Origin: a virus
DNA: 25,488 bases
Strand: one strand, 5' to 3'
IMG/VR virus record: IMGVR_UViG_3300017719_000180
Span: 1 to 25,488 of that record
The stretch's first letter is position 1. Every line of letters begins with the position of its first letter. Both the position numbers and the translations under genes were made by a program. Shown piece by piece: positions 1,845 through 22,351 of the stretch. The notes under the pieces are model-generated. The model ran no database searches. It was not told where the DNA came from and was given only the letters and a program-made list of their open reading frames with translations.

Positions 1845-2633
1845 ATGGCACAATACAGCGTACACCGTCAAGATCATTATGGTCCAAGTAATAACGATCT
1901 GCACGAAGTCGTGATAATTGCGGATAAAGACGGTAACATTATAAACTCGTCTGGCGCGGCAAGTAATATCCCAATCGCAGCCGGCGATGTATCTGGTTAC
2001 ACACATATTAATAAGTTTGGTGCTACCGATGGAGACGTGACCGAAGGGACTGTTTGGGACGGTAATGACGGCAATGTCTCATACCCATACCCAGACGCTG
2101 GACTAGTTTCCGTTTCTTCTTTAACAGAGGTCGGCGAAGATGTAATCGTTGACGGTCTAGACGCAGAATACAATCTGCAGAGTGAGACGATTGCTATCGG
2201 CGCGACAGGTACTCTGACATTCTCCCGCGTGTTCCGTGTTAAAATGTCCACCATTACAAACCAAAGCGACATCACCATCAATCAAGGTGGAGATCTTGCT
2301 GCGAAAATTCTCGCTGGTCTAGGTCAGACTTTGATGGCAACATACACAGTACCTGCCGGTAAGACTGGTTACATATTAGGCATTCATTTGGGTTCAGATA
2401 AAGCATCGACTAACTCACGTATGACCTATCGTTTGTTTTGTCGTGAAATTTTAAATGGTGGCGTGTTTCGAATCAAAGCAAACCTAAACGCCGCAGGTGG
2501 ACAAAGTCTAGATATCTCGTATCCAGTTCCGTTAATTGTCCCAGAAAAACATGACATTAAGATTGATGTTGTGGCAGGGCAACAGACGCAGGTATCGGCA
2601 ACCTTCGATATTATTCTGGTAGACAACGATTAA
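1845..2633 (+). CDS. Probable virion structural protein, 262 aa
   Basis: The start is supported by a TAGGAG site about ten bases upstream of ATG 1845. The product is acidic, rich in beta-forming Val/Ile/Thr residues, and lacks signal peptide, membrane segments and cysteine pairs. It contains GTVWDGNDG followed by YPYPD, then a run of short strands (VSSLTEVGEDVIVDGLDAEYN) typical of the beta-sandwich decoration or fibre-like proteins that marine phages encode. The second half (from about residue 165) looks like another beta domain with a receptor-like jelly-roll pattern. Function as a head- or tail-decorating protein is inferred from composition and late-type context. It is separated by zero bases from the next gene (TAATG). 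Confidence 0.6.
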   Translation: MAQYSVHRQDHYGPSNNDLHEVVIIADKDGNIINSSGAASNIPIAAGDVSGYTHINKFGATDGDVTEGTVWDGNDGNVSYPYPDAGLVSVSSLTEVGEDVIVDGLDAEYNLQSETIAIGATGTLTFSRVFRVKMSTITNQSDITINQGGDLAAKILAGLGQTLMATYTVPAGKTGYILGIHLGSDKASTNSRMTYRLFCREILNGGVFRIKANLNAAGGQSLDISYPVPLIVPEKHDIKIDVVAGQQTQVSATFDIILVDND

Positions 2634-3856
2634 TGAACGATTTTCAAGAATACATTACTGAGCAACAAAATACGCACATGACTCATATCGAGGACAAAGT
2701 CCTCTATGGCGGCGTAGACGGGACACGTCAGGCGATTAATGCACTGCGCGAGTTGCGTAACTTGCTCGGTGGGAAACGCGGTAGTAGAGTTTCGGTTAAG
2801 TGGGACGGTGCTCCTGCTATCTTTGCTGGAATAGATCCTCGCGATGGCGAGTTCTTCGTGGCGAAGAAAAGCATCTTCAATAAAAACCCAAAGGTCTACA
2901 AGACTGATGCTGCGGTTGACGCTGACACCTCTGGTGATCTGGCAATTAAGTTAAAGGATGCACTCAAATATCTTCCTGCCCTTGGAATCAAAGGTGTGAT
3001 ACAGGGCGACTTCCTCTTTGGTCGAGGCGATGTACAAACGGAAGAGATCGACGGGGAAAACTACAGCACGTTTCACCCGAACACGCTTGTCTATGCGATT
3101 CCGTATAAGCAAGCAGTAGAAGTGAGAAGGGCAAAGATTGGAATCGTCTGGCATACTTCTTACACCGGAAACACATTTGAAACGATGCGCGCATCCTATG
3201 GCGTGGACGTTGCCTCTTTAAATAATTCGCGGCACGTCTGGTCTCAAGATGCAATGCTGAACGATATGCGCGGCGCAACCCTAACCAAGCGCGAAACCGA
3301 AAGTGTTAACGAAATGCTTTCGACCATCGGCAGACTCTTTAACAGTGTATCCGGCACAACTCTTCGCGAGTTGGAGGGGAATCAAACGCTCGCTCAACAT
3401 ATCGAGCAGTTCAATAACACGTATGTCCGCGAGGGGCAAACTGTTACAGATACCCGCGCACACACTGCCAAACTCATTCGCTGGATAAAAGCGAAGTATC
3501 AAAAAGAGATCAATGCAAGAAAAACAACGCGCGGAAAAACTACGCAGCAAAGAAAACTTGATGACTTACTTTCGTTCTTTTCTACCGAAAACCGTGCGAA
3601 TCTGATTAAAATATTCGAGTTGCAAAAATTAATTGTGCTAGCGAAACTAAAGCTTATAAATAAACTTAATTCGATTGGTAATTTTAAAACGTTCGTCAAA
3701 TCTACGAAAGGTTATAAGGTTGCTGGTCAAGAAGGATTTGTAGCGATAGACACACTTGGTGGTGACGCGGTGAAACTGGTTGATCGTATGGAGTTTTCAT
3801 ACAACAACTTTTCGCCCAAAATTTTGAAGGGATGGCAGACACCAAAGAGGAGATGA
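2633..3856 (+). CDS. Ligase/capping-type nucleotidyltransferase-like protein (DUF6267-like) with head-targeting N-terminus
   Basis: 407 aa, translationally coupled to the preceding gene. Residues 1-10 read MNDFQEYITE, nearly the T4 internal-protein targeting peptide (MKTYQEFIAE), with a predicted cut after Glu10. The body carries, in order, motifs that match covalent nucleotidyltransferases (DNA/RNA ligases, capping enzymes): KWDG at 56-59 (motif I, Lys56 the candidate adenylated lysine), FFVAKKS at 74-80, VIQGDFLF at 122-129 (motif III-like), EGFV at 367-370 (motif IV) and AVKLV at 379-383 (motif V, Lys381). A long, mostly helical insertion of about 235 residues separates motifs III and IV. 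I recall this family as a DUF common in marine phages. Activity is inferred, since motif III has Asp in place of the usual Glu. A role in repairing or capping nucleic acid early after injection would fit. Confidence 0.7.
   Translation: MNDFQEYITEQQNTHMTHIEDKVLYGGVDGTRQAINALRELRNLLGGKRGSRVSVKWDGAPAIFAGIDPRDGEFFVAKKSIFNKNPKVYKTDAAVDADTSGDLAIKLKDALKYLPALGIKGVIQGDFLFGRGDVQTEEIDGENYSTFHPNTLVYAIPYKQAVEVRRAKIGIVWHTSYTGNTFETMRASYGVDVASLNNSRHVWSQDAMLNDMRGATLTKRETESVNEMLSTIGRLFNSVSGTTLRELEGNQTLAQHIEQFNNTYVREGQTVTDTRAHTAKLIRWIKAKYQKEINARKTTRGKTTQQRKLDDLLSFFSTENRANLIKIFELQKLIVLAKLKLINKLNSIGNFKTFVKSTKGYKVAGQEGFVAIDTLGGDAVKLVDRMEFSYNNFSPKILKGWQTPKRR
3655..3662 (+). promoter_or_regulatory. Perfect late-promoter octamer TATAAATA inside a gene
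   Basis: An exact TATAAATA occurs about 200 bases before the end of the nucleotidyltransferase-like gene. It could start a late transcript for the basic-protein genes beginning at 3860. Its position inside a coding sequence and the AT-rich local context mean it may be chance. Confidence 0.3.
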
Positions 3857-3859
3857 TCA

Positions 3860-4396
3860 GTGGCGAAACCACTTGGATTTAAAGACTTCATCACAGTTGA
3901 TTATAGACCAGGAGAAGATGATCAACTGAAGTATAAGGCGCAGAAAAGAAAGAAAGATTTAGACCGTGGTCTTAACGACGACTGCTGGTCTGGATACAAG
4001 CGCGTCGGGATGAAAAAGAAAGGTGGTAAGATGGTACCGAACTGCGTACCAGAAGACCAGCAACCAACTCAAGAGAAACTCAGTCTCGCCTCTCGCCGCG
4101 CACTCGCGCGAGCGATGAAAAGGAATAAAGCAAAAATAAAGATGGGTCGCCGACGTGCGATGCAGCGAGTTGCCACACCTGATGTGTTGATGAAGCGCGC
4201 CAAGAAACACGCTCGTAACATTATGTTCAAGAAAATCGCTAAGAAGCATCGCGGTGAAGTTACACCTGCGCGCAAAGCGGCGATTGAAGATCGTCTAAAT
4301 AAGATGAAGGGGCGTATTGATAAAATGGCGCGAAAGATGATACCGCAGATTCGAAAGATAGAAAAAGAGAGAAGATCTGGCGGTTCAGACAAGTAG
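3860..4396 (+). CDS. Very basic putative head-internal / DNA-binding protein, 178 aa
   Basis: It starts at GTG 3860, three bases after the upstream stop, with GATGATCAG before it. An N-terminal FKDFITVD aligns loosely with the head-targeting peptides of its neighbours but lacks the Glu of the cleavage site. Residues 42-64 hold the motif CWSGYKRVGMKKKGGKMVPNC, a short module I recall in many marine T4-like phage proteins. From residue 73 a long Arg/Lys-rich helix region (LSLASRRALARAM onward) is strongly positive and probably binds nucleic acid. There are no membrane segments. Charge, family memory and context suggest a packaged DNA-condensing or core protein, but this is inference. The gene is followed by a ten-base gap. 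Confidence 0.6.
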   Translation: MAKPLGFKDFITVDYRPGEDDQLKYKAQKRKKDLDRGLNDDCWSGYKRVGMKKKGGKMVPNCVPEDQQPTQEKLSLASRRALARAMKRNKAKIKMGRRRAMQRVATPDVLMKRAKKHARNIMFKKIAKKHRGEVTPARKAAIEDRLNKMKGRIDKMARKMIPQIRKIEKERRSGGSDK

Positions 4397-4406
4397 GGAT
4401 TACATA

Positions 4407-5939
4407 ATGACATCTATTCCATCTTTTAAACAGTATCTGGTTGAGGAAGAAAGAGAAGCGTTCTTCACGTTTGGTCGAATGAACCCTCCGACGATCGGTC
4501 ACGGTAAACTGATGAATGTTCTGTCGGCAAAAGCAGGACGTAATCCACACAAAGTATACCTCTCACATACTCAAGACGGAAGGAAGAATCCGCTAGAGTA
4601 TCGTCAAAAAGTTAAGCACGTTCGTAAAATGTTTCCGAAGCATTCCCGTAATGTCATACTGGACACCGGAGCGAAAACTGTCTTCGACGTGGCAACGAAA
4701 TTATATGACCAAGGTTTCAATAAAGTCACCATGGTCGTAGGATCTGACCGCACAACTGAATTCAAAACACTTCTTGATAAGTACAATGGTGTCAAGGGTC
4801 GTCACGGTTTTTACAACTTCGAACGAATCAACATCGTATCAGCAGGGGCGAGAGATCCAGATGCGTCAGGTGTTGAAGGTATGTCTGCCTCTAAGCAACG
4901 TGATAACGCAAAGAATAATGATTTTACTGCATTCTCTCAAGGTGTCCCGTCAACTATGTCGAACAACGAAGCAAAGCGTTTGTTCAATGACATTCGTAAC
5001 GGTCTGGGTCTGAAAGAATCGTCGCACTTTAAGAACCACGTTGAACTTGAGCGTGTATCTGAAACTCGCGAGCAATATGTCGAAGGTAATCTGTTCGAAG
5101 AAGGCGATCGCGTTCGTGTCAAATCAAATGAAAAGGTAGGATATGTCCACCGTCTCGGTGCTAACTATGTCATCGTTGCGCTCGACGAAGGTCGCGTATC
5201 CCGTCAATGGTTAGACGGTATCGAAAAGTTAGAGGAGAAAGGTTTCGCAGGGTCAGGTACTCTCCGTGATCTGATGCCAGATGTCGACTCATTCCTTGAC
5301 CGATTTACTCACGGTAAGAAGTACAAGCATGCAGTTCGCTTGTTCCTTGACCTCAGAAAGAAGAATCCAAAAAACGCATACCAAAACCTTCGCCGTGCTG
5401 CGCAGATCGCAGACGTCGATCTTCGCTCGCTCGATAAAGTATTCCGCGATATGGTCAAGAAGGGCAAGATGCCTAAGCACCTGATCAACTACCCAACTCT
5501 ACAGAAAGAAAACTATCTTCCTGACGAGGGAACTGACGCGGCAGTCAAGCATGCTAAGAAGATGACTCCAAAGGCAGAAGAAGCAGCGACGCGTCAAGAT
5601 CCAGATATCAAAGACCGCAAGGGTACACAACCAGCATCGTATCACTCTGGACTATCCAAAGCGCAAAAGGTTGCACGCGATCGTCAGTTTAAGAAGCAAG
5701 CAAAGATGCGTGACAATGATCCGAAGGCATATAAACCTGCTCCTGGTGATAAGACTGCGAAGACCAAGCAGTCAAAGTACACTGCGGCATATAAGCGTAT
5801 GTTTGGAGAGAGCGAATTAGCGGCAGTGAAGAAAACAATTAGTCGTGAGAAAGAGCAGGATGCTGTGCGTCACGACCGTATGATGGATCGCGCTAGATTA
5901 CAACGCGCACAAAGAAAGGCGAGGGAAACACGTCCATGA
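4407..5939 (+). CDS. HIGH-superfamily nucleotidyltransferase fused to SH3-like and basic modules, 510 aa
   Basis: Residues 7-13 (FKQYLVE) form a head-targeting-like peptide with a possible cut after Glu13 or Glu14. Residues 18-170 form a cytidylyltransferase/adenylyltransferase-like Rossmann domain: FGRMNPPTIGH at 22-32 (the HxGH-type nucleotide-binding motif), VGSDR at 111-115 and GMSASKQRDNA at 158-168 (the ISSTxxR-like motif). Residues about 231-276 (EEGDRVRVKSNEKVGYV) look like an SH3/KOW-like beta barrel. Residues 285-365 are helical. Residues about 398-467 contain KGTQPASYHSGL and AYKPAPGDKTAKTK, a basic module I recall from several marine phage proteins. The C-terminus is highly charged. 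In related enzymes the reaction joins an NTP to a phosphorylated small molecule, as in NAD synthesis. The substrate here is unknown. Confidence 0.7.
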   Translation: MTSIPSFKQYLVEEEREAFFTFGRMNPPTIGHGKLMNVLSAKAGRNPHKVYLSHTQDGRKNPLEYRQKVKHVRKMFPKHSRNVILDTGAKTVFDVATKLYDQGFNKVTMVVGSDRTTEFKTLLDKYNGVKGRHGFYNFERINIVSAGARDPDASGVEGMSASKQRDNAKNNDFTAFSQGVPSTMSNNEAKRLFNDIRNGLGLKESSHFKNHVELERVSETREQYVEGNLFEEGDRVRVKSNEKVGYVHRLGANYVIVALDEGRVSRQWLDGIEKLEEKGFAGSGTLRDLMPDVDSFLDRFTHGKKYKHAVRLFLDLRKKNPKNAYQNLRRAAQIADVDLRSLDKVFRDMVKKGKMPKHLINYPTLQKENYLPDEGTDAAVKHAKKMTPKAEEAATRQDPDIKDRKGTQPASYHSGLSKAQKVARDRQFKKQAKMRDNDPKAYKPAPGDKTAKTKQSKYTAAYKRMFGESELAAVKKTISREKEQDAVRHDRMMDRARLQRAQRKARETRP

Positions 5940-6163
5940 AATTTAAAGAGTTTGTAGTCAACGAAGATGCGTTGTCAGATAAGGCAGCAAAGTCTGGTAT
6001 CTCCAAGTCGACGTTGAAGAAGGTATATGATCGCGGCGTCGCGGCGTGGAAAACAGGGCATCGTCCAGGAACCACACCAGCACAGTGGGGTCACGCTCGT
6101 GTCAACGCTTTCATCGTTAAGAAAAAGAAAGGTGGACTAAATCACGATAAGGATCTAGCATGA
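5936..6163 (+). CDS. Small DUF5824-like phage protein with head-targeting N-terminus, 75 aa
   Basis: It overlaps the upstream gene by four bases (ATGA), so it is coupled. The N-terminus MKFKEFVVNE fits the targeting pattern, with Glu at position 10 and Val-Asn-Glu as the cleavage-site triplet. The rest carries GISKSTLKKVYDRGVAAW, then TGHRPGTTPAQWGHARV and a lysine-rich end LNHDKD. I recall this block as a widespread phage domain of unknown function (DUF5824-like). It is a short helical domain and probably nucleic-acid or protein binding. The mature product after cleavage would be about 65 residues. The family call is from memory. Confidence 0.65.
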   Translation: MKFKEFVVNEDALSDKAAKSGISKSTLKKVYDRGVAAWKTGHRPGTTPAQWGHARVNAFIVKKKKGGLNHDKDLA

Positions 6164-6417
6164 AAACATTTTTTGAACTTAGAACTGAAAGCGTGGCGAC
6201 AGATTATGTTAATAAGGATCGCGACGCTCACGAACCTTCTTACAGAAAAAAGAATTCTATGAGCGATTTGAAAAAGGCATCATCCAAGGCAGCGAAGAAA
6301 GGTGTTGGCGGCGATGTCGCAGTGGGTCGAGCACAGAAGTTTCAGCAGAAAAGGCGACTCGCAAAGGGTCAATCTTTGAATAAGAGACCGCCTCTGCCAG
6401 AGGAAAATCAATCATGA
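6160..6417 (+). CDS. Small basic protein, candidate head-internal protein, 85 aa
   Basis: The start overlaps the previous stop by four bases. It begins MKTFFELRTE, with Phe at 4 and Glu at 10 as in the targeting peptides of neighbours, but Arg at position 8 departs from the I/L/V preference, so cleavage is doubtful. The rest is Lys/Arg/Ser rich without cysteines, membrane segments or recognised motifs. It probably is disordered or DNA-bound. Its position in the middle of the basic-protein cluster is the main guide to its role. Confidence 0.5.
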   Translation: MKTFFELRTESVATDYVNKDRDAHEPSYRKKNSMSDLKKASSKAAKKGVGGDVAVGRAQKFQQKRRLAKGQSLNKRPPLPEENQS

Positions 6418-6596
6418 GTAAAACTAAGAAACCGCGCAACAAGAAAATGAGTCAAGCGAAGAAAGAAAGAGTAGCGGAGAACAGTTTGCAAAGTAATAAA
6501 TATGATCTGAAGAACTCAGGATCGCAAAACCTGAAAATGAATAACAATAACCGCGCGCAATCTAAGGTGTTTCGCGGCGCATCGAGAGGAAGTTAA
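6414..6596 (+). CDS. Small Lys/Asn-rich basic protein, 60 aa
   Basis: It starts inside the stop of the preceding gene (ATGA) and ends one base before the next ATG. The product is almost entirely Lys, Arg, Asn, Ser and Gln, for example KKPRNKKMSQAKKERV, and lacks hydrophobic core residues, so it is probably disordered. No targeting peptide is visible. A nucleic-acid-binding or filler role in the head is inferred from charge and neighbours only. Confidence 0.5.
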   Translation: MSKTKKPRNKKMSQAKKERVAENSLQSNKYDLKNSGSQNLKMNNNNRAQSKVFRGASRGS

Positions 6597-6597
6597 A

Positions 6598-7800
6598 ATG
6601 TCAGCACAAGATAAGTTGGATCGCCGCGCAGCAAAGCACGGTCTGGGGTCAGATGAGCGTAAGCGCAAGATTCAGAAAGCGAAAGATTTCTTCAGCAAAC
6701 CTGTGCCGACATATAGCAAAGACGAATTGCGTAAAATGGGTCATCCAGTTGAATCGACAGCAGAGTATGGTAAGTCAATGGATAGAATCAAAGACAAAGA
6801 AAAGAACGCTGCTATCAAACCAAAGGATCGTGAAACTTTGGGCAAACTTGCTGACCTCATGAAGAAACAAAAGCGAACCGAAGCATACCGCAAACCTACA
6901 CAGGCAGAGATTGACGCTGACAAAAGGAAAGACGGTAAGAGCAAAGATTCTTCAACAAGATATCGTGACGTGAAGAAGAAGATGTACGGTAACGCAATGA
7001 GCGGTCTAAAAAAGGAAACAGCAGGTCAAGAGTACACTGCAGTACCAGTAAACACTGCTGGTGATGTTAGTGGTGGCGATCGTATGTCAATTGCGAAACT
7101 TGATGCTATCATGAAGAGGCGTTCAAAGGATAAGCGCCAGAAAGAATCGGTCGAACTTGACGAAAACAAGGTCTTCTTCGTCAAGGTAGGCGATGGTCGT
7201 GATAGTATGACTGTTAAGACCAAGGCAAAAAATAGTCGTGAAGCATTGAAGAAGATGCGCGCTGAACATCCAAAAGACAGAGTGTCTTTAGATATTAATC
7301 AAAAACAAGGGAAATCCGCAGGTACATTCGAATCATCTTTGCCAGCACACCTTCAGGGGATTATCGGTAAAGGCGGAAACATTGACGCTAAGAAAGTTAA
7401 AAAAGATCCAGTACTTAACAAGAACAAAACTAAAGTTACGGATGTGACTCCAAAGGGTTATGGACCTAAAGAAGAAGAAGTTGACGAATCAACTATGCGC
7501 GATCGTCAGGTGGTTAGAGCAATGCGAATCGCAAAGGATATGGCAGGAAATCATACTGGTGCTACCAAAGCAATCGAGAAATTGAAGAAAGGATTATCTG
7601 ATCACCCTAAAGTAAGAGGTGCACTTCGAACCGCAAATGAGTCTGTTTCTTCTGCTGATAAGAAACCCCAGAACTTCCGTGACCCAGAAACAGGCAAGTT
7701 GAAGGTTCGTATGGTACCAGTTGACCGTGACGTTGTTCGCGGTGACGATAAAGCGAGAATTGTTCGTAAGAAGCGTTTCAAGCACTTGAGGTCAAAATGA
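6598..7800 (+). CDS. Lysine-rich putative head polyprotein with internal protease-like sites, 400 aa
   Basis: ATG 6598 follows the previous stop by one base, and the ribosome site GAGGAAG lies just upstream. The protein is rich in Lys, Asp and Glu with no membrane segments. It can be divided into a charged helical N-terminal part (1-185), a small beta-alpha domain (VFFVKVGDGRDSMTVKTKAK, residues 192-235), a linker with LPAHLQGIIGKGGNID (248-263) and a helical domain (MRDRQVVRAMRIAKDMAGNH, 300-347), then a basic tail. ELDE (186-189) and EVDE (294-297) precede the folded parts and resemble (I/L)-x-E cut sites of T4-type prohead protease. This suggests processing into several internal peptides, as happens to T4 core proteins. 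The domain blocks are familiar from marine phages, but their functions are unknown to me. Confidence 0.6.
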   Translation: MSAQDKLDRRAAKHGLGSDERKRKIQKAKDFFSKPVPTYSKDELRKMGHPVESTAEYGKSMDRIKDKEKNAAIKPKDRETLGKLADLMKKQKRTEAYRKPTQAEIDADKRKDGKSKDSSTRYRDVKKKMYGNAMSGLKKETAGQEYTAVPVNTAGDVSGGDRMSIAKLDAIMKRRSKDKRQKESVELDENKVFFVKVGDGRDSMTVKTKAKNSREALKKMRAEHPKDRVSLDINQKQGKSAGTFESSLPAHLQGIIGKGGNIDAKKVKKDPVLNKNKTKVTDVTPKGYGPKEEEVDESTMRDRQVVRAMRIAKDMAGNHTGATKAIEKLKKGLSDHPKVRGALRTANESVSSADKKPQNFRDPETGKLKVRMVPVDRDVVRGDDKARIVRKKRFKHLRSK

Positions 7801-8138
7801 AAAAGTTTAGTCAGTTCATAGAAGATAAAGTGGATGCTTGCTGTGAAGCATGTAATGAAGAACTCATACATGAAGCGGCAGAGTATCAGGGCAAGAAAGT
7901 TACTTTGAACAACCCTGTTCGCGGTGGTACGAAGAAATTCTATGTCTTCGTTAAGAACGAGAAGGGTAATGTCGTTAAAGTTTCGTTCGGTGATCCAAAT
8001 ATGGAAATAAAGCGAGACGATCCGGCACGACGTAAGAGTTTCCGCGCTCGTCACAACTGTGACAATCCAGGACCAAAGTGGAAAGCACGATACTGGTCTT
8101 GTTATCAGTGGCGATCAGGGTCTAAGGTAGATAGTTAA
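7797..8138 (+). CDS. Putative head-internal protein with N-terminal leader, 113 aa
   Basis: It is coupled to the previous gene by an ATGA overlap. The first 26 residues start MKKFSQFIED and end LIHE, followed by AAEYQGKKVTLNNP. An (I/L)-x-E site at Ile24-His-Glu26 would release the mature domain exactly where the conserved-looking sequence begins. Cys15, Cys16 and Cys19 lie in the leader. The mature part (KFYVFVKNEKGNVVKVSFGD, then RRKSFRARHNCDNPGP and YWSCYQW) is a compact basic beta-rich domain. I recall this domain from many marine phages, sometimes near head core genes. H-x-C and C residues could bind a metal. Its exact role is unknown. Confidence 0.65.
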   Translation: MKKFSQFIEDKVDACCEACNEELIHEAAEYQGKKVTLNNPVRGGTKKFYVFVKNEKGNVVKVSFGDPNMEIKRDDPARRKSFRARHNCDNPGPKWKARYWSCYQWRSGSKVDS

Positions 8139-8434
8139 TGCTCCGGTTCGCTCAATACATTGTTGAAGATGTGAAAAGAGAGCAAAAACTTAACGGTAGA
8201 AAGTTTTCCGTGTCTTATCATGTGGAACCAACCCCATCTCAAAAGAAACATATAAACAATATATTCGTACCGTATGCTCAAATGTATACAAAGGATGGGT
8301 ATGACGTGACCGTTCGTTCTTCGCGGCATATGGGTCGCGAGTCAAGGTTTGTTTTGTTTAGAACGAAGGGCGGCAAAAGTCAACCGATGGTTGACAAACT
8401 TATAAGTACCCACGGAAAAATAAAAGACGCCTAA
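8138..8434 (+). CDS. Small protein with canonical head-targeting-like N-terminus, 98 aa
   Basis: The start overlaps the last base of the previous stop (TAATG). Residues 1-10 are MLRFAQYIVE, a textbook match to the T4-like targeting pattern with Ile8-Val9-Glu10 as the cut site. The mature part (from Asp11) is basic, with a beta-alpha alternation and no known motif. The family is not recognised. It ends the long head-internal block and is followed by a noncoding gap with a perfect late-promoter octamer. Confidence 0.6.
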   Translation: MLRFAQYIVEDVKREQKLNGRKFSVSYHVEPTPSQKKHINNIFVPYAQMYTKDGYDVTVRSSRHMGRESRFVLFRTKGGKSQPMVDKLISTHGKIKDA

Positions 8435-12084: not shown

Positions 12085-14070
12085 ATGCCAATAAGAATAC
12101 AACCTGACCGAGACAACCTACTTGAAGACTACGCGGTCGGAATGCTCAAAGACTTTTATATGCTCGAGACTGAGTCTTCGCCTCAAGAGGCATACGCTCG
12201 GGCAGCACGTGCTTGGTCAACATTCCAAGGGGATCTAGATCAAGACTTAGCAAAGCGACTCTATGAATACGTTTCTAAGAAGTGGTTCATGTTCGCCTCT
12301 CCCGTCCTTTCTAATGCGCCGGATAAGAACGGCGAAGGTAAAGGACTGCCCATCTCATGCTTCCTCACATACGTCCCAGACACACTTGACGGTTTGATTA
12401 ATCATTCGTCAGAGTTACGCTGGTTGTCAGTTATGGGCGGCGGAGTCGGAGGTCATTGGAGTGATGTAAGAACTGTTTCGGACATCGCCCCAGGACCCAT
12501 CCCATTCCTTCACACCGTGGATGCTGATATGATTGCCTATCGTCAGGGCAGGACTCGTAAGGGTTCATATGCCGCATACCTTGACGTATCGCACCCTGAC
12601 ATCATAGAATTCCTAAATATTCGTATACCCACTGGTGATGTCCAGCGGAAAGCACTGAACCTGCACAATGCTATCAATATTTCTGATGAATTCATGCAAG
12701 CAGTGGTGAGTAACACAAATTTTGAACTTCGTGATCCAAAAGATAATGTAGTTAAAGAGTCAGTGAATGCTCGTAAACTCTGGGAGCGTATTCTTGAAGT
12801 ACGATTCCGAACGGGCGAACCCTATTTGAATTTCATCGACACAGCAAATAACGCATTGCCAGATCATTTGAAACAACTTGGACTGAAGGTCCGTGGATCA
12901 AATCTCTGCAATGAAATACATTTACCGACTAGTGCTGAAAGGACAGCAGTTTGTTGCCTTTCTTCGCTAAACTTGGAGTATTACGATGAATGGAAGGAAA
13001 CATCTATTGTTCGGGATCTTATTAGGATGCTCGATAACGTACTTGAGTTCTTTATTAACAACGCACCTGACTCAATCTCAAGAGCAAAGTACAGCGCTGC
13101 CCGTGAACGTTCCCTCGGGTTGGGTGCTATGGGCTTCCACTCCCTTCTCCAAAAACATGGAGTTGCATGGGAATCTACCACCGCATGTGAAATCAATAAT
13201 GTTGTCTTTGAACATATCCGAACTGAAGCAGATAAAGAAACGCGGTTGCTCGCCGACGAGAGAGGTGAGTGCGGCGATGGCGTTGGTACTGGAAGGAGAA
13301 ACTCCCATCTTATGGCGATTGCCCCTAATGCTTCCAGCGGAGTTATCTTGTCAACTAGCCCATCGATCGAACCATCAAAAGCAAATGCCTACACGCATCG
13401 CACAAGAGCAGGGTCGTTCCTAGTCAAGAACAAGTATCTCGAAGGTTTACTCGAGAAGCATGGCGAGAACAATGAATCGAACTGGACTTCGATCATAACG
13501 AATAAAGGTTCGGTTCAACATCTACCATTCCTAACGGAAGGGGAGAAAGCGATCTACAAAACAGCACAGGAACTGGATCAGAACTGGGTGGTTCAGCATG
13601 CAGCAGATCGTCAGAAATATATTTGCCAAGGGCAGTCGGTTAACCTGTTCTTCCCATCTGGCGCTGACAAAACATATGTCAACAAGGTACATCTGAAGGC
13701 ATGGAAAGAAGGTCTGAAGGGTCTGTACTATCTACGTACAGAAGCGAAGAGTCGTGCTGAAAACGTCTCTGAGAAGGTTGAGCGCGTTGCTCTACAGGAT
13801 GACACTCGCTCCATCATTTACGGTAAGAAGAACTGCCCATATTGTCAGATGGCGAAAGATGAGATGACCATGCGAGGCATGCCATTTGATTACATCGACC
13901 TTGAAGAAGTGGGTAAAACAGCATCTGAAGTGACAGGAAGAAGGGTTGGTACAGTACCTCAAATTTATCTTAACGGAAGTTATATTGGTGGTTATGATGA
14001 CTTGATTGGATACCTAAATAATACTCCTACCAATCAAGAAGAATCTGAATGCAGAGCATGCGAGGGATAA
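12085..14070 (+). CDS. nrdA: Class Ia ribonucleotide reductase alpha subunit with embedded glutaredoxin domain
   Basis: 661 aa. It reduces ribonucleoside diphosphates to deoxy forms with NrdB. Visible active-site residues are Cys92 (PISCF), Asn273-Leu-Cys275-Asn-Glu277 (thiyl radical Cys and acid), Cys290 in AVCCLSSLNL, and the Tyr548-Tyr549 radical-transfer pair in LYYLRT. No ATP-cone precedes the catalytic domain, so it probably escapes dATP feedback. Residues about 576-645 form a glutaredoxin domain (CPYC 584-587, TVPQIYLNG 623-631, GGYDDL). The protein then ends ESECRACEG, the redox-active CxxC tail. The glutaredoxin thus sits between the core and its own substrate tail. nrdB follows after three bases. 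The start ATG has a weak GAAGAG site upstream. Confidence 0.93.
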   Translation: MPIRIQPDRDNLLEDYAVGMLKDFYMLETESSPQEAYARAARAWSTFQGDLDQDLAKRLYEYVSKKWFMFASPVLSNAPDKNGEGKGLPISCFLTYVPDTLDGLINHSSELRWLSVMGGGVGGHWSDVRTVSDIAPGPIPFLHTVDADMIAYRQGRTRKGSYAAYLDVSHPDIIEFLNIRIPTGDVQRKALNLHNAINISDEFMQAVVSNTNFELRDPKDNVVKESVNARKLWERILEVRFRTGEPYLNFIDTANNALPDHLKQLGLKVRGSNLCNEIHLPTSAERTAVCCLSSLNLEYYDEWKETSIVRDLIRMLDNVLEFFINNAPDSISRAKYSAARERSLGLGAMGFHSLLQKHGVAWESTTACEINNVVFEHIRTEADKETRLLADERGECGDGVGTGRRNSHLMAIAPNASSGVILSTSPSIEPSKANAYTHRTRAGSFLVKNKYLEGLLEKHGENNESNWTSIITNKGSVQHLPFLTEGEKAIYKTAQELDQNWVVQHAADRQKYICQGQSVNLFFPSGADKTYVNKVHLKAWKEGLKGLYYLRTEAKSRAENVSEKVERVALQDDTRSIIYGKKNCPYCQMAKDEMTMRGMPFDYIDLEEVGKTASEVTGRRVGTVPQIYLNGSYIGGYDDLIGYLNNTPTNQEESECRACEG

Positions 14071-15033: not shown

Positions 15034-15167
15034 TGGAATTCGAATACGAGTTTGAGTGCCCAGTTTGTGATACAGCGATGACGTTGGTGGTAAAGGATTG
15101 CGAAGAACCACCAACGCATTGCCCCATGTGTGGTTCTCCTAACGATGAGCATTGGGAAGACTTATGA
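15033..15167 (+). CDS. Mini zinc-ribbon protein, 44 aa
   Basis: The ATG overlaps the nrdB stop (TGATG), and the TGA at 15165-15167 overlaps the next start. Two cysteine knuckles, CPVC (residues 9-12) and CPMCG (31-35), form a rubredoxin-like zinc ribbon. The rest is acidic. Such mini proteins occur next to nucleotide-metabolism genes in T4-like phages and may bind metal or RNA polymerase. The position between nrdB and a nuclease gene with overlaps at both ends supports translation. Confidence 0.7.
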   Translation: MEFEYEFECPVCDTAMTLVVKDCEEPPTHCPMCGSPNDEHWEDL

Positions 15168-15574
15168 CTTGGTATTATGAAGACGAAGTATTCGATCCGG
15201 ATGAGGACTTTATCAAGGACTATGTTGGGTTCGTGTATTGCGTGACTGAGAAAGAATCAGGCAAGAAGTACATTGGTAAAAAGTTCTTTTGGTCAGTCCG
15301 CAAACTCCCACCACTCAAAGGCAAGACTCGTAAGCGAACCAAGATCACCGAGTCTGACTGGCGCAAGTATTATGGATCCAACGAGCAACTCAAATCATTA
15401 GTAGAGGAGCGCGGTGGTGATGCGTATCATCGAGAGATCCTTCGCCTATGTACTACGAAAGGTCAGTGCTCATACTACGAAGCGAAGGCACAGTTTGATC
15501 ACGATGTACTGTTGAGTGATGAATATTTCAACGAATTTATTGGTTGTAAAATTCATTCTAAACATTTACATTAG
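15164..15574 (+). CDS. SegE-like GIY-YIG endonuclease, 136 aa
   Basis: ATG 15164 overlaps the previous stop (ATGA). An in-frame TTG 12 bases earlier is less likely. The N-terminal half has FVYCVTEKESGKKYIGKK, matching the paired G-[IV]-Y ... Y-I-G of GIY-YIG nucleases, followed by the conserved-looking block KGKTRKRTKITESDWRKYYG (SegE-type). Lower down, HREILRLC and YYEAKAQF supply the usual Glu position (Glu in YEAKAQ). These are stand-alone homing-type nucleases in T4-like phages that cut recipient DNA to spread. It may instead be a captured, non-mobile form. It precedes a late-promoter-like octamer. Confidence 0.7.
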   Translation: MTWYYEDEVFDPDEDFIKDYVGFVYCVTEKESGKKYIGKKFFWSVRKLPPLKGKTRKRTKITESDWRKYYGSNEQLKSLVEERGGDAYHREILRLCTTKGQCSYYEAKAQFDHDVLLSDEYFNEFIGCKIHSKHLH

Positions 15575-15616: not shown

Positions 15617-16054
15617 ATGGCATTGAATAATAGATTACACGTATTCGAAATTCTTGAAAAGGCGTCAAAGCTTAAGAGTAGGGATGAAAGAATTGAAATG
15701 TTACAGCAACATAAAATTATGCCTCTTCTAGATGTATTGAAGGGCACATTCGATAATACCATTCAGTGGAATCTTCCTGATGGTACTCCCCCATACACCC
15801 CTAACACAGAGGATGCTCCTTCACCCTCTTCGCTGTTAAAACAACACATGAACTTCAAGTATTTCGTCAAGGGATTGCGCGAGAGCAGCAGTCTTCCGGC
15901 AGTTAAACGTGAGCGCATGTTCATTGACCTGCTAGAGTCTGTTTCTTCGCAAGATGCATCGGTCGTAGTATCGATGATCAATAAGAAGAGTCCATATAAA
16001 GGTATCACGAAGAAACTCGTACAAGACGCGTTTCCGGACCTGATTGTGGAATGA
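15617..16054 (+). CDS. DUF6433-like phage protein, 145 aa
   Basis: A TGGAG site precedes ATG 15617 by nine bases. An in-frame TTG 24 bases upstream is less likely. The protein holds DVLKGTFDNTIQWNLPDGTPPY, KYFVKGL, PAVKRERMFIDLLESV and the C-terminal GITKKLVQDAFPDLI, the layout of a family (DUF6433) I recall from T4-like marine phages. It is helical, with no signal or membrane segment. Function is unknown, and its own late-promoter octamer suggests a late structural or assembly role. Confidence 0.75.
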   Translation: MALNNRLHVFEILEKASKLKSRDERIEMLQQHKIMPLLDVLKGTFDNTIQWNLPDGTPPYTPNTEDAPSPSSLLKQHMNFKYFVKGLRESSSLPAVKRERMFIDLLESVSSQDASVVVSMINKKSPYKGITKKLVQDAFPDLIVE

Positions 16055-18604: not shown

Positions 18605-18733
18605 ATGTTTGAAAATTTTCTATTATGTTTTGTATCAGTGTTATTGGTGATCACTCAGTACAATATCTGGGTTGTTAAGAACCAACTTGAGTCACTGAAA
18701 AAAACGTTGAAAAATTTGGGTGCCGAAAAATGA
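18605..18733 (+). CDS. Small single-pass membrane protein, 42 aa
   Basis: It has a GAGGTTAGT ribosome site before ATG 18605, and its stop overlaps the next ATG (ATGA). Residues 5-20 (FLLCFVSVLLVITQYN) form one membrane helix, followed by a basic amphipathic tail (LESLKKTLKNLG). The size and layout are typical of phage small membrane proteins. It could anchor or regulate a neighbouring enzyme. Function is unknown. Confidence 0.55.
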   Translation: MFENFLLCFVSVLLVITQYNIWVVKNQLESLKKTLKNLGAEK

Positions 18734-19530
18734 AGACGCTTATCTATCAAGTGTGTATCGGTAAGGCAGCGAAATCTAAACTGTATAAGCACTGTATGCA
18801 ATCAGTAAAGGATTACTGTGAGGCGCACGGTATTGACTACATTAGGCAAGATGTACCAGTGCTCAGAATTAAACCTGATGTTTTCCGCACTAATCGTAGC
18901 AAAGACTCGTATGAAAAACATGGCGGATACCTGCCAATCTACGAGAAAGAAAATGCATTCGCGTATCTCGAAGAGTATGACCGCATCGCTATTATTGATG
19001 CCGATATCTACATTCGCCCTGACTCACCAAATATCTTCGAAGAGTTCGGTGATGATCATGCGTTTGGTGCGGTATGCGAGCGCGAGATGCCAATCACCGA
19101 GCAATATAAAATTAAGATTAAAGGGTACTCAAAGATGCAGTACTCTACTCTTCACAAACCACAAATTGGAATTGATTTCGAACCAAACGATAAAGGGTTT
19201 GAGTTCTACAACATGGGTATGATCTTGCTCAATAGCAAAAAGTTCCTACCGTTCCTCAAGGGTCAAACGCCAAAACAGTTTATTGAGCGCGCAGAGTTTC
19301 AGAACTTTGTCGATGGCATGGGCGCATGGAAATGGAGCACTGATCAAACTCTGCTTAATTTCTTTTTGAAGAAACATAAAGTTCCTACCGAGCATATGCA
19401 TTGGAAGTGGAACGGTCTTTTCACTGCTAACACAAACTTGGATGAGTGCCATTTTATACATTTTTTCCTTAAAGATAGACTGCCTGATGCGGGTGAAAAT
19501 GTAGCAGAATTAATGGAGTTAATAAAGTGA
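18730..19530 (+). CDS. GT-A-fold glycosyltransferase-like protein, 266 aa
   Basis: It is coupled to the 42-aa gene. AIIDADIYIRPDSPNIFEEF carries the D-x-D metal/sugar-nucleotide motif (Asp90-Ala-Asp92) of GT-A enzymes, and FYNMGMILLNS plus HFIHFF follow in the positions seen in GT8/GT34-like families. There is no membrane segment, so it is cytoplasmic. Acceptor and sugar are unknown. It begins a tight cassette of eight carbohydrate-modification genes, each starting inside or within two bases of the last. Confidence 0.75.
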   Translation: MKTLIYQVCIGKAAKSKLYKHCMQSVKDYCEAHGIDYIRQDVPVLRIKPDVFRTNRSKDSYEKHGGYLPIYEKENAFAYLEEYDRIAIIDADIYIRPDSPNIFEEFGDDHAFGAVCEREMPITEQYKIKIKGYSKMQYSTLHKPQIGIDFEPNDKGFEFYNMGMILLNSKKFLPFLKGQTPKQFIERAEFQNFVDGMGAWKWSTDQTLLNFFLKKHKVPTEHMHWKWNGLFTANTNLDECHFIHFFLKDRLPDAGENVAELMELIK

Positions 19531-20261
19531 TTCAAGGTAAGATCATATATGTTCCTGGACATAAAGAGTCCATCGAGCAAGCAGAACAATCTGCGAATAC
19601 CTTTTCTAATTTCAATGGATGGAATGTTCAATTACGTGCAGGAATCACCCCTAACACCTACCGAGAACCGCTCAGATTAAAATGGATTGAGAACGGTCGA
19701 ATGGCGGGACATGCTTCGCGCCTTGATCGGTATCCAGACGAGGAATCGAGATGGCAAAAAATGTTGTTGACGAAAAAAAGTTGCGCAACCAACCATCTTA
19801 GATTTTGGCAAGAAACGGTTAAGTCCGGTAAAACTATGGTATTCTTAGAACATGATTCTATTTGTATTGGAGACTTCCCAGAGGATATAGAGTTCGAAGA
19901 TATATTGGTTCTGAATATGCAGTATGTTTTTGATGATCCGAGTCCACTTGCGAGGTTCTGGAGACATACTCCTAAAAATAAAGAACCAGGAATATACAAC
20001 TTCGAACCAAGTTATCCGGTAAGATATACTTATAAAAACGAATGGAATGGAGCAGACCTAATACCAGGAACTGCGGCATATGCGATCACTCCACAAGGCG
20101 CACAAAAAATGCTCGATGGAGTTAAGAAGCATGGACTTGATCAATCAGATTATATGATCAACAGCAAACTTGTTAACATTCAATACCTTTTCCCTAGTAT
20201 CGTTAAGTTCAACGACGTAAACCTTAAAACATCGCACGGAGATGGCACGCGACTACCGTAA
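19527..20261 (+). CDS. GT25-like glycosyltransferase, 244 aa
   Basis: It starts at GTG 19527, overlapping the previous stop by four bases. The layout matches the LPS/GT25 family: IIYVPGH near the N-terminus, CATNHLRFWQ (86-95), FLEHDS (107-111) with Glu108-His-Asp110 in the place of the usual E-D-D, and PGTAAYAITPQGAQKML after residue 175. These enzymes transfer sugars to LPS or collagen-like acceptors. Codon use is A/T-rich by eye. It is the first of four paralogs in this cassette. Confidence 0.72.
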   Translation: MIQGKIIYVPGHKESIEQAEQSANTFSNFNGWNVQLRAGITPNTYREPLRLKWIENGRMAGHASRLDRYPDEESRWQKMLLTKKSCATNHLRFWQETVKSGKTMVFLEHDSICIGDFPEDIEFEDILVLNMQYVFDDPSPLARFWRHTPKNKEPGIYNFEPSYPVRYTYKNEWNGADLIPGTAAYAITPQGAQKMLDGVKKHGLDQSDYMINSKLVNIQYLFPSIVKFNDVNLKTSHGDGTRLP

Positions 20262-20262
20262 T

Positions 20263-20928
20263 ATGAAAACGTTTATCATTTATAATAAACCGATCAACCA
20301 ATCTTATATCAACGCGATCGATTCTAAAAAGTCTTTTGAAGAATACAAAGGTTGGGATGTAGAATTGTTTGATGGTTGTAATCCATCGAATCTGGATGAA
20401 TATCAGAAAATGTACAAACTGAAAGACATAAGAGCAGCGAATAGATCCGCTTCGAAGAAGTCTTGTTTCTATTCACATTTTCATCTTTGGAAATATTCTA
20501 GCGAGAACAACATTCCTATCGCCATCATAGAGAACGACACTGAGTGTTTATCGGACTTACCGGAGATTAATCAAGAAGGGGTGTTTCACCTTTCTATAGA
20601 GACGAATATTAAATGTCAAGCGCACGGCAGAAAGGTTGATGTCGATTCTATGCTGATATCAAAGAAACCTGCAGGTATTCATGAGGTTCAAGAGTTGAGT
20701 CAGAAGAACCTCAGAACTGGAAAAAAGTGTATGCCAGGATCTACTGCATACGTGATCACTCCAGGATCCGCCAAAGTTCTGATCAAAGACTGTGAGATAA
20801 AAGGTTGGTACCAAAACGATTCATTAATCACTACAGATTTGGTAAATCTACAGTATTTGAAACCTTCGCCAGTAAAGTACTGCGCAAAAAAAGAACTTAA
20901 ATCTTCTTCAATTTGGAAGGCGGATTAA
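20263..20928 (+). CDS. GT25-like glycosyltransferase, second copy, 221 aa
   Basis: ATG 20263 is one base after the previous stop. An in-frame ATG at 20242 would overlap the upstream gene more and is less likely. The family pattern is present: FIIYNKP, SCFYSHFHLWKY (67-78), IAIIEND (86-92) with Glu90-Asn-Asp92, and MPGSTAYVITPGSAKVL. The C-terminal part LVNLQYLKPSPVKY resembles LVNIQYLFPSIVKF of the gene just upstream, which indicates shared descent. Catalytic activity is likely but unproven. Confidence 0.72.
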   Translation: MKTFIIYNKPINQSYINAIDSKKSFEEYKGWDVELFDGCNPSNLDEYQKMYKLKDIRAANRSASKKSCFYSHFHLWKYSSENNIPIAIIENDTECLSDLPEINQEGVFHLSIETNIKCQAHGRKVDVDSMLISKKPAGIHEVQELSQKNLRTGKKCMPGSTAYVITPGSAKVLIKDCEIKGWYQNDSLITTDLVNLQYLKPSPVKYCAKKELKSSSIWKAD

Positions 20929-21656
20929 TGTATCTTCGTGATCACAAAATACTGTATCTTCATATACCAAGAACTGGAGGGCAAAGTGTAACACGGTTCT
21001 TCTATGATTGCTTGGGTATCCTTGATCAGTTTGCCAACACGAACGGATACAATGAAATCAAACAAAGTAAAACAGTAGAACAACTCTATCAGTCAGACTC
21101 GCCGAATGAACGATACCTATTCGCCAAGAACAATCATTGGAAAATGCCAGGACCACTGATCCTGACGCATATGACGTTGGACGAGTATGTACAGCATGGA
21201 TATATTACTGAACAGGAGTTGCTTTCTACCAAAAAATTAGTTACAGTAAGAAATCCATACGAAAAGATTATCAGTTCATGCAACTATCGAAATGTTGCCC
21301 CAGACTGGTTCTGGTTAGATCGTATGGTTAATGAAAGCAAAATGGGTTCAGAGAAATATCGGCACTTCATGAGACAATCTGATTACATAAAATACAACGG
21401 CGAAGTCACTGTTGATGAAATCGTGCGGATTGAGGATATCAACCGCATACCTTCCCTTGTATCAGATAGAATCGATGTGACCGGAAAATCTGTACCTCAC
21501 TTTCATAAACTCCCTGCAGGGACAGTCTACAAGCGTGTGATCGACAGAGAGATCATATGCGCAACTGAGGTGGGGCATATTAAACGCGCAACATTAGATT
21601 GGATCAACGACTACTACCACGAAGACTTTGAGAGGTTTGGATACGAAAAGGTATGA
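20928..21656 (+). CDS. Second sulfotransferase-family protein, 242 aa
   Basis: ATG 20928 overlaps the previous TAA (TAATG). A TTG in the same frame at 20913 is less likely. LHIPRTGGQS (11-20) is the PAPS 5'-sulfate loop, and LVTVRNPYEKIISSC (104-118) is the 3'-phosphate motif. PGPLILTHMTLDEY may contain the catalytic histidine (His81). It resembles eukaryotic-type Sulfotransfer_2 enzymes. It is embedded among glycosyltransferases with no gaps, so it probably sulfates the glycan they build. It is only distantly similar to the first sulfotransferase. Confidence 0.82.
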   Translation: MYLRDHKILYLHIPRTGGQSVTRFFYDCLGILDQFANTNGYNEIKQSKTVEQLYQSDSPNERYLFAKNNHWKMPGPLILTHMTLDEYVQHGYITEQELLSTKKLVTVRNPYEKIISSCNYRNVAPDWFWLDRMVNESKMGSEKYRHFMRQSDYIKYNGEVTVDEIVRIEDINRIPSLVSDRIDVTGKSVPHFHKLPAGTVYKRVIDREIICATEVGHIKRATLDWINDYYHEDFERFGYEKV

Positions 21657-22351
21657 AGGCAAAAATTATTACACTCCGAGATAATAAGTTCTCGGTAGCA
21701 GCAGTAGAGAAGGCACTCGCCTCATCAGAAAAAGTCGGAAACGGTTTTACCGTTGAGGTATACGATGCGATCACACCAGAAATGGTTGATGATAAAATGA
21801 AAGAGCATCGCCTCACTTGGAACTATCCATCTGCCGGTGAGGAGTATGACATGAAAAGTGGATTGAAGAAAGCAGCATATATGACCGCGAAACTCAACAA
21901 GCGAATCGGTTGTTTCTTATCGCACTATGAGCAGTGGAAACAGTGTGCTGAGTCTGGAGAATCGATGATCGTACTGGAGCATGATGCACTATTCACCAAC
22001 AAGGTTGAAGTTGACATGCTCGAGGAAAGTAGTTACAATATAATAGGATTGAATAATCCGAAGGGTGCTACGCGACGTGCCAGTCTTTTCGATCAGCAAG
22101 TCAAACAGCGACCCGAGGGTGTTGTATCTTGCCCGAAGGTTGATCTGGATCATGTACCCCAAGGATTAGCAGGTAATTCTGCATACTATATAAAACCTGA
22201 AGGCGCAAAGAAGATGCTAGAACTGGTGAATGAATTTGGTGCGTGGCCAAACGATGCGATTATGTGTCGCCAGTTACTCGGCGGTAAACTGGGTGTCACG
22301 AACCCATACTACACGAAAGTACAAGGACTTGTTTCAACTACATCATTATGA
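21653..22351 (+). CDS. GT25-like glycosyltransferase, third copy, 232 aa
   Basis: It overlaps the previous gene by four bases. The family pattern is clear: KIITLRDN, RIGCFLSHYEQWKQCAESGE (84-103), MIVLEHDALF (105-114) with Glu109-His-Asp111, and LAGNSAYYIKPEGAKKMLEL. Compared with the first two copies it keeps the canonical C-x-L-S-H motif, and G/C-ending codons are more frequent. Acceptor is unknown. Confidence 0.75.
   Translation: MKAKIITLRDNKFSVAAVEKALASSEKVGNGFTVEVYDAITPEMVDDKMKEHRLTWNYPSAGEEYDMKSGLKKAAYMTAKLNKRIGCFLSHYEQWKQCAESGESMIVLEHDALFTNKVEVDMLEESSYNIIGLNNPKGATRRASLFDQQVKQRPEGVVSCPKVDLDHVPQGLAGNSAYYIKPEGAKKMLELVNEFGAWPNDAIMCRQLLGGKLGVTNPYYTKVQGLVSTTSL

What the first reader, a model, noticed from the sequence alone, without database searches (positions are those of the whole stretch)
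2633..3856. Unannotated-type family carries ligase/capping nucleotidyltransferase motifs
The 407-aa product has KWDG (56-59), VIQGDFLF (122-129), EGFV (367-370) and AVKLV (379-383) in the order and relative role of motifs I, III, IV and V of covalent nucleotidyltransferases, but with a 235-residue helical insertion and Asp in place of Glu in motif III. I recall the family only as a DUF. With a head-targeting leader it could be an injected DNA/RNA end-repair enzyme.
Basis: partly seen in the sequence, partly recalled or inferred. Interest (0 to 1): 0.75.

Follow-up and report, generated by a model that had tools for sequence, protein, structure and literature searches.

The report
Divergent ligase-type enzyme with head-targeting leader
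A protein known only as 'family of unknown function DUF6267', carried by hundreds of marine viruses of bacteria, looks like the catalytic half of a DNA- or RNA-joining enzyme; most of the genomes checked have no other recognisable ligase, and in this virus the protein also carries a signal for packing it into the virus head.

Summary
Window 2633-3856 encodes a 407-aa member of Pfam DUF6267 (6e-101). The named residues (K56, D58, G59, D126, E367, G368, K381) are invariant in all 236 distinct full-length homologues collected. AlphaFold models of the long form (pLDDT 90.7) and a short form (91.2) both retrieve DNA ligases, RNA ligases and capping enzymes first: ranks 1-7 and 1-23. No single hit has E<0.001, and sequence profiles give only marginal support. 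I judge ligase-type covalent nucleotidyltransferase at about 0.85.

Corrections: only residues 219-348 are a helical insertion. The Asp in motif III is a family hallmark. The leader is not family-wide: here MNDFQEYITE matches T4 IPIII MKTYQEFIAE in register, but most cyanophage members start where the leader would end.

New: 12 of 14 DUF6267 genomes lack a recognisable ATP-dependent DNA ligase; none has a PF01653 or PF09414 ligase. This window also encodes DUF6433 (15617-16054), which matches the DNA-binding domain of T4 ligase gp30 (hhalign 94%). Best reading: the catalytic piece of a polynucleotide ligase, possibly a split DNA ligase with DUF6433, packaged in this lineage. Activity, substrate, partnership and packaging are untested; two genomes with a classical ligase besides argue against simple replacement.

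The parts
2633..3856 (+). DUF6267 gene, 407 aa; divergent ligase-type covalent nucleotidyltransferase
2633..2662 (+). Codons 1-10, MNDFQEYITE: T4-type capsid targeting leader; predicted prohead-protease cut after E10
   Evidence: same register as T4 IPII/IPIII MKTYQEFIAE|A; rule L/I-x-E (PMC9026906); disordered in the model; inferred, no proteomics
2675..2695 (+). Invariant H15-x-x-H18-x-E20-D21 at the N-terminus of the mature protein; role unknown
2798..2809 (+). Motif I, K56-W-D-G59; K56 is the predicted nucleotidylated lysine
2852..2869 (+). Motif Ia-like strand, FFVAKK (74-79), K79 invariant
2996..3019 (+). Motif III, V-I-Q124-G-D126-F-L-F; Asp where ligases have Glu
3287..3676 (+). Helical insertion, residues 219-348, basic (net +10 for 209-348)
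3731..3742 (+). Motif IV, E367-G-F-V
3767..3787 (+). Motif V, A-V-K381-L-V-D-R385; the ORF ends 22 residues later, so no OB domain or motif VI
4407..5939 (+). Linked HIGH-type nucleotidylyltransferase (GRMNPPTIGH, phage 'cytidylyltransferase/NMNAT'), also with a leader (FKQYLVE); fused to DUF6267 in S-PM2
5936..6163 (+). Small ORF with a leader-like N-terminus (MKFKEFVVNE)
7797..8138 (+). Small ORF with a leader-like N-terminus (MKKFSQFIED)
8138..8434 (+). Small ORF with a leader-like N-terminus (MLRFAQYIVE)
15617..16054 (+). DUF6433: stand-alone domain homologous to the N-terminal DNA-binding domain of T4 ligase gp30; candidate partner in trans
   Evidence: PF20025, 2.7e-25; hhalign 94%, P 1.5e-7

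Best explanation
DUF6267 is a divergent covalent nucleotidyltransferase of the ligase/capping superfamily that most likely works as the catalytic piece of a polynucleotide ligase. K56 attacks an NTP (probably ATP) to form enzyme-Lys-NMP; D58, K79, D126, E367 and K381 line the nucleotide and metal site; the nucleotide then goes to a 5'-phosphate end, which is sealed. It has no C-terminal OB domain; its basic helical insertion, and possibly the stand-alone gp30-type DNA-binding protein DUF6433 encoded 12 kb downstream, would hold the nucleic acid. In this clade a T4-type leader sends the protein into the prohead, is cut after E10, and the mature enzyme would enter the cell with the DNA. Shown here: family, conservation, motif order, predicted folds, leader register, gene linkage, gp30-DBD homology of DUF6433, absence of other recognisable ligases in 12 of 14 relatives. 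Inferred: catalysis, substrate, partnership, packaging and injection. Component estimates: covalent nucleotidyltransferase 0.85; joins polynucleotides 0.55; works with DUF6433 0.35; packaged in this clade 0.65.
For: Catalytic residues invariant in 236/236 homologues. Confident models of long and short forms; PDB neighbours: ranks 1-7 DNA ligases for the long form (best E 0.032), ranks 1-23 all ligases/capping enzymes for the short form; an annotated phage RNA ligase in BFVD at E 0.0033, prob 0.98. Profile alignment with a joint RNA+DNA-ligase profile puts motifs I and III in register, P 6.5e-4, 0 of 120 column shuffles as high. 12 of 14 DUF6267 genomes have no PF01068 ligase and none has PF09414 or PF01653, with T4 as positive control for the first two. 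Reviews report that cyanomyoviruses lack gp30 (PMC2984593) and that subgroup 2.1 phages lack any known DNA ligase but encode a stand-alone ligase DNA-binding domain (PMC7824862), which is DUF6433. DUF6433 is in this window and matches T4 gp30-type DBDs at 94%, P 1.5e-7, 0 of 100 shuffles. Leader; five leader-type ORFs, all in 2633-8434.
Against: No Foldseek PDB hit reaches E 0.001, and TM-scores are low (about 0.2). Sequence profiles are marginal: 27% at best, 7% with a broader ligase set, and at noise level against DNA or RNA ligases alone. No OB domain or motif VI, which DNA ligases use. Stenotrophomonas phage DLP6 and S-CRM01 have DUF6267 and also a classical PF01068 ligase, so it is not simply a gp30 replacement. 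DUF6433 occurs in Sinorhizobium and Caulobacter phages, which were not named among the DUF6267 carriers. Cyanobacterial host ligase could serve the phage. No direct detection in virions; leaderless S-CREM2 DUF6267 was not among the virion proteins.
Confidence: 0.5

Rival explanations
1. A stand-alone RNA ligase that re-joins host or phage tRNAs cut by host defence nucleases early in infection, delivered by the virion in this clade.
For: No OB domain or motif VI, as in RNA ligases; some bacterial PF09414 RNA ligases are short ORFs of 237-250 aa; motif III QGD and motif V KLV resemble QGE and KLV/KAI of some RNA ligases; short-form model ranks Trl1 and Naegleria RNA ligase high; phages carry tRNAs, four in this window.
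Against: No PF09414 match; no polynucleotide kinase/phosphatase looked for or found beside it; a gp30-type DNA-binding domain in the same window points to DNA; profile match to RNA ligases alone is at noise level.
Confidence: 0.25
2. A covalent nucleotidyltransferase with a non-polynucleotide target (protein NMPylation, small-molecule or cap transfer), coupled to the adjacent HIGH-type nucleotidylyltransferase; one version is an NMN/NAD+ cycle in which the enzyme uses NAD+ and the neighbour rebuilds it from NMN.
For: The HIGH-type gene lies within 4 kb downstream in 171 of 182 loci and is fused to DUF6267 in S-PM2; published work calls it NMNAT-like and finds it in virions; an invariant HxxHxED element precedes motif I.
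Against: No PF01653 match; the neighbour's true substrate is unknown; the linkage may only reflect conserved gene order in T4-like phages.
Confidence: 0.17
3. Motif mimicry: a different fold whose KxDG, EG.V and K.V motifs are coincidental.
For: No individually significant fold or profile hit.
Against: All superfamily residues invariant, correctly ordered and on the expected strands; both models retrieve the same superfamily out of 350,542 chains.
Confidence: 0.08

Closest known systems
ATP-dependent DNA ligases, T4 gp30 type (PF01068)
   Same: Predicted core fold; motif order I-III-IV-V; relatives that carry DUF6267 mostly lack it; its DNA-binding domain occurs as separate DUF6433 in the same window
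   Different: No detectable PF01068 match, Asp for Glu in motif III, no OB domain/motif VI, 130-residue helical insertion, invariant N-terminal HxxHxED
RNA ligases (PF09414; T4 Rnl2, Rnl5/DraRnl-like, stand-alone bacterial forms)
   Same: Nucleotidyltransferase core without C-terminal OB domain; motif III QG(E/D) and motif V K-L/A-V/I look alike
   Different: No PF09414 match, no Rnl2 or Rnl5 accessory domain recognised
mRNA capping enzymes (RNGTT/Mce1, Pce1)
   Same: Same superfamily, appear among the fold neighbours
   Different: No OB domain, no GTP specificity evidence
T4 internal proteins IPII/IPIII (capsid targeting sequence)
   Same: 10-residue leader with aromatics at 4 and 7, I8 and E10 in the same positions
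   Different: Cargo is a large enzyme; leader absent in most cyanophage members; cleavage and packaging not shown
Pfam DUF6433 / stand-alone ligase DNA-binding domain (PMC7824862)
   Same: Same phage group, similar distribution, same window
   Different: Published proposal was recruitment of a host ligase; a phage-encoded catalytic partner was not proposed in the passages read

Membership tests
Pfam DUF6267 | Profile match over curated cut-off | tested here: met
   339 bits vs 27, residues 13-394
Covalent nucleotidyltransferase superfamily | Motif I KxDG with invariant Lys | tested here: met
   K56/D58/G59 in 236/236
Covalent nucleotidyltransferase superfamily | Motifs III, IV and V in order with acidic, EG and Lys residues | tested here: met
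   D126, E367-G368, K381 invariant; Asp instead of Glu in III
Covalent nucleotidyltransferase superfamily | Adenylation-domain fold | tested here: inconclusive
   Favourable: top ranks all in the superfamily for two models, but best E 0.03 and 0.06; coordinates not available for an active-site overlay
Covalent nucleotidyltransferase superfamily | Forms enzyme-Lys-NMP | not testable with these tools
   needs assay
ATP-dependent DNA ligase | PF01068 profile match | tested here: not met
   No match in the hmmscan
ATP-dependent DNA ligase | C-terminal OB domain with motif VI | tested here: not met
   ORF ends 22 residues after motif V; model ends in one helix
ATP-dependent DNA ligase | DNA-binding domain | tested here: inconclusive
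   Not in the ORF (DUF6267 vs T4 DBD 0.4%); present as separate DUF6433 in the window; partnership not shown
RNA ligase PF09414 | PF09414 profile match | tested here: not met
   No match
NAD+-dependent DNA ligase | PF01653 match with Ia domain | tested here: not met
   No match in P0001 or in 15 phage genomes
T4-type capsid-targeted internal protein | N-terminal leader ending in L/I-x-E | tested here: met
   MNDFQEYITE vs T4 MKTYQEFIAE; most long-form homologues keep it
T4-type capsid-targeted internal protein | Cleaved and present in the virion | not testable with these tools
   No virion proteome of a leader-bearing member found; leaderless S-CREM2 member not detected in its virion

The most novel reading that the evidence does not exclude
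A split DNA ligase: in cyanophage-type T4 phages the gp30 ligase has been taken apart or replaced, with the DNA-binding domain as one protein (DUF6433) and a new branch of catalytic domain without OB fold (DUF6267) as another, acting in trans; in one lineage the catalytic piece is also packed into the head and delivered with the genome.
Probability: 0.28. Interest if true: 0.87.

Novelty: new variant of a known kind. Interest (0 to 1): 0.72.

Why it matters
Reviews have said that cyanomyoviruses, among the most abundant marine phages, have no recognisable DNA ligase and left open whether they hold an unrecognised one (PMC2984593) or recruit the host's through a stand-alone DNA-binding domain (PMC7824862). 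DUF6267 is a concrete phage-encoded candidate, present in 468 deposited phage records and with its active-site residues invariant, and one purified protein with a K56 mutant would answer the question. It would also give a function to a family that is still a DUF and a worked example of an enzyme that gains or loses a capsid-targeting leader at a clean boundary.

Tried and rejected
PDB sequence search with the protein and with a 13-sequence profile: nothing related. Pfam beyond DUF6267: only chance hits. NCBIfam and PADLOC: none. Plasmids: none. hhalign against DNA-ligase-only or RNA-ligase-only profiles: noise level, and a first run used wrongly oriented loci and was redone. One long shuffle run timed out and a first motif regex was too strict; both repeated. 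I first suspected S-CREM2 gp160 (297 aa, in the virion) to be the DUF6267 protein; it is not; the real one lies at 58.9-59.8 kb and is not in the proteome table. PF04675 for the ligase DNA-binding domain missed even T4 gp30, so its silence means nothing. DUF6267 function in defence: no support. Idea that DUF6267 carries the leader in all phages: rejected.

Full report
What is there. Window 2633-3856 (+) is an intact 407-aa ORF. It is a full-length member of Pfam DUF6267 (PF19782, 6e-101) and PHROG 455. The window is a 25-kb fragment of a virus record with T4-like gene content: DUF6267, HIGH-type nucleotidylyltransferase, nrdA/nrdB, SegE-type endonuclease, PhoH, phage lysozyme, glycosyltransferases and four tRNAs. 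DUF6267 was found in 468 of 50,697 phage records, nearly all cyanophages, plus Methylophilales, Pelagibacter, Vibrio, Pseudoalteromonas and Stenotrophomonas phages, in no plasmid, and among bacterial and archaeal assemblies in 37 contigs of mixed taxonomy, nearly all from metagenome bins, which I read as phage contigs. T4 has none. No paper in the library uses the name DUF6267.

Motifs. In 70 diverse homologues, 29 columns are invariant; they include K56, D58, G59, D126, E367, G368, K381 and R385, and also H15, H18, E20, D21, K79, Q124, P149, N150, Y154, H174, T175, Y177, N262 and K338. Across 236 distinct full-length homologues all the predicted catalytic residues are kept; the two sequences missed by the regex differ elsewhere. 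In the model K56 ends strand 52-56, D126 sits inside strand 122-129, E367-G368 opens strand 368-372 and K381 lies in strand 379-382, which is where motifs I, III, IV and V sit in ligases (general knowledge of the fold). Asp instead of Glu in motif III is universal in the family. Natural short forms (about 298-310 aa) keep every motif but have a much smaller helical region.

Fold. AlphaFold2 on the 70-row alignment gave mean pLDDT 90.7 and pTM 0.86; a short form, L211:1898-2791, gave 91.2 and 0.86. Foldseek against PDB: for the long form ranks 1-7 are DNA ligases, and I count 22 of the top 50 as ligases or capping enzymes; for the short form ranks 1-23 are all ligases or capping enzymes, and I count 41 of 50. 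The best E-values are 0.032 and 0.064, so no single hit is significant, and the hits are related to each other, so the ranks are not independent tests. Among viral models the best match outside DUF6267 itself is an annotated RNA ligase of Agrobacterium phage Atu_ph07 (E 0.0033, prob 0.98). Profile comparison is weak: with a joint RNA+DNA ligase profile score 30, P 6.5e-4, motifs I, Ia and III in register and 0 of 120 column-shuffled controls as high, but a larger ligase set gave P 0.005 and single-class profiles noise. I take the fold as likely (about 0.85), not proven.

Leader. MNDFQEYITE lines up residue by residue with MKTYQEFIAE of T4 IPII and IPIII. In T4 the first ten residues of IPIII suffice for targeting, residues 4 and 7 matter for targeting and 8 and 10 for processing, and gp21 cuts after L/I-x-E (PMC9026906); the window protein has F4, Y7, I8, E10. 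The leader is disordered in the model. Most long-form homologues have it or a close variant, while short cyanophage forms and the long forms of P-HM2 and S-PM2 start directly at M-(x)-N-x-H, that is at residue 13 of this protein. So the leader is an add-on at a clean boundary. In the window five ORFs carry a strict leader pattern and all lie in 2633-8434; no ORF outside that block does. Some cyanophages with leaderless DUF6267 have the leader on the neighbouring cytidylyltransferase instead, for example S-RIM2 MKKFSAFLTEA. Virion proteomics in the literature detects that cytidylyltransferase in S-SM1 (PMC3037559), S-CREM2 (PMC10665884) and an NMNAT in S-SCSM1 (PMC9602691). S-CREM2's leaderless DUF6267 (58.9-59.8 kb) is not in its table of virion proteins. 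Packaging of the leader-bearing form is therefore an inference.

Neighbour. A GRxNPPTxGH nucleotidylyltransferase lies within 4 kb downstream in 171 of 182 loci with enough sequence, and in S-PM2 the two are one 591-aa protein. Its substrate is unknown, although papers call it NMNAT-like.

The missing ligase. A review states that cyanomyoviruses lack a g30 homologue and that either a distant homologue is unidentified or they do without (PMC2984593). A second states that subgroup 2.1 phages (cyanobacterial and alphaproteobacterial) lack any known DNA ligase but encode a stand-alone alpha-helical ligase DNA-binding domain, AAX44695.1, which might recruit a host ligase (PMC7824862). Here, 14 of 14 tested genomes have DUF6267 (13 were chosen for it), 12 have no PF01068 ligase, none has PF09414 or PF01653; T4 rings for PF01068 and PF09414. 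AAX44695.1 is P-SSM2 PSSM2_317 and belongs to DUF6433. DUF6433 is also encoded in this window at 15617-16054 (2.7e-25). A DUF6433 profile against T4 gp30-type DNA-binding domains gives probability 94%, P 1.5e-7 over 125 columns, with 0 of 100 shuffles near it, which confirms the published idea independently. The two families have similar distributions (475 or 424 records for DUF6433, depending on the query, and 468 for DUF6267), but DUF6433 also occurs in Sinorhizobium and Caulobacter phages, and shared core-genome membership alone would give much of the overlap. With T4 gp30 as query, Synechococcus is not among the ten commonest names, the tenth having 53 records.

How it most likely works. 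ATP (or another NTP) is attacked by K56, NMP is passed to a 5'-phosphate end and the end is sealed. Lacking an OB domain, the enzyme would need its basic helical insertion, or DUF6433, to hold the nucleic acid. The in-trans arrangement is the most interesting reading but rests on genome content and homology of the parts, not on any interaction evidence. DLP6 and S-CRM01, which have DUF6267 and a classical ligase, show that DUF6267 is not only a stand-in for gp30. RNA repair, or a target other than polynucleotides, remain open.

Verdict. As a new branch of the ligase-type superfamily it is a new variant of a known kind.

Noticed in passing
window 2633-8434: Five ORFs with T4-style head-targeting leaders (2633, 4407, 5936, 7797, 8138) sit in one block of small, mostly very basic ORFs (K+R up to 30%); none outside the block. 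Looks like a cassette of internal head proteins.
   Followed up: partly
window 15617-16054: DUF6433, a stand-alone domain homologous to the T4 gp30 ligase DNA-binding domain, next to a SegE-type GIY-YIG endonuclease gene (15152-15574).
   Followed up: yes
window 2675-2695: Invariant HxxHxED just after the leader cut site in all DUF6267 members; position suggests metal, substrate or leaving-group binding, but nothing known explains it.
   Followed up: no
L093:3992-5767: S-PM2 fuses DUF6267 and the HIGH-type nucleotidylyltransferase into one 591-aa protein without a leader.
   Followed up: partly
window 3860-4396: CWSGYKRVGMKKKGGKMVPNCVP resembles a stretch of S-CREM2 gp160 (CWPGYEKKGTKKMFGKEYNNCVK), which was found in virions.
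   Followed up: no
BFVD H8ZNG8; PHROG 4808: A 728-aa DUF6267-fold protein and a cytidylyltransferase-matching PHROG bear ribonucleotide reductase names; probably misannotation or gene-order carry-over.
   Followed up: no
window 18730-23663: Run of glycosyltransferase-like genes (GT8 and GT25 matches) among further unscanned ORFs in a phage fragment.
   Followed up: no
window 12085-14070: Ribonucleotide reductase large subunit carries a C-terminal glutaredoxin domain.
   Followed up: no
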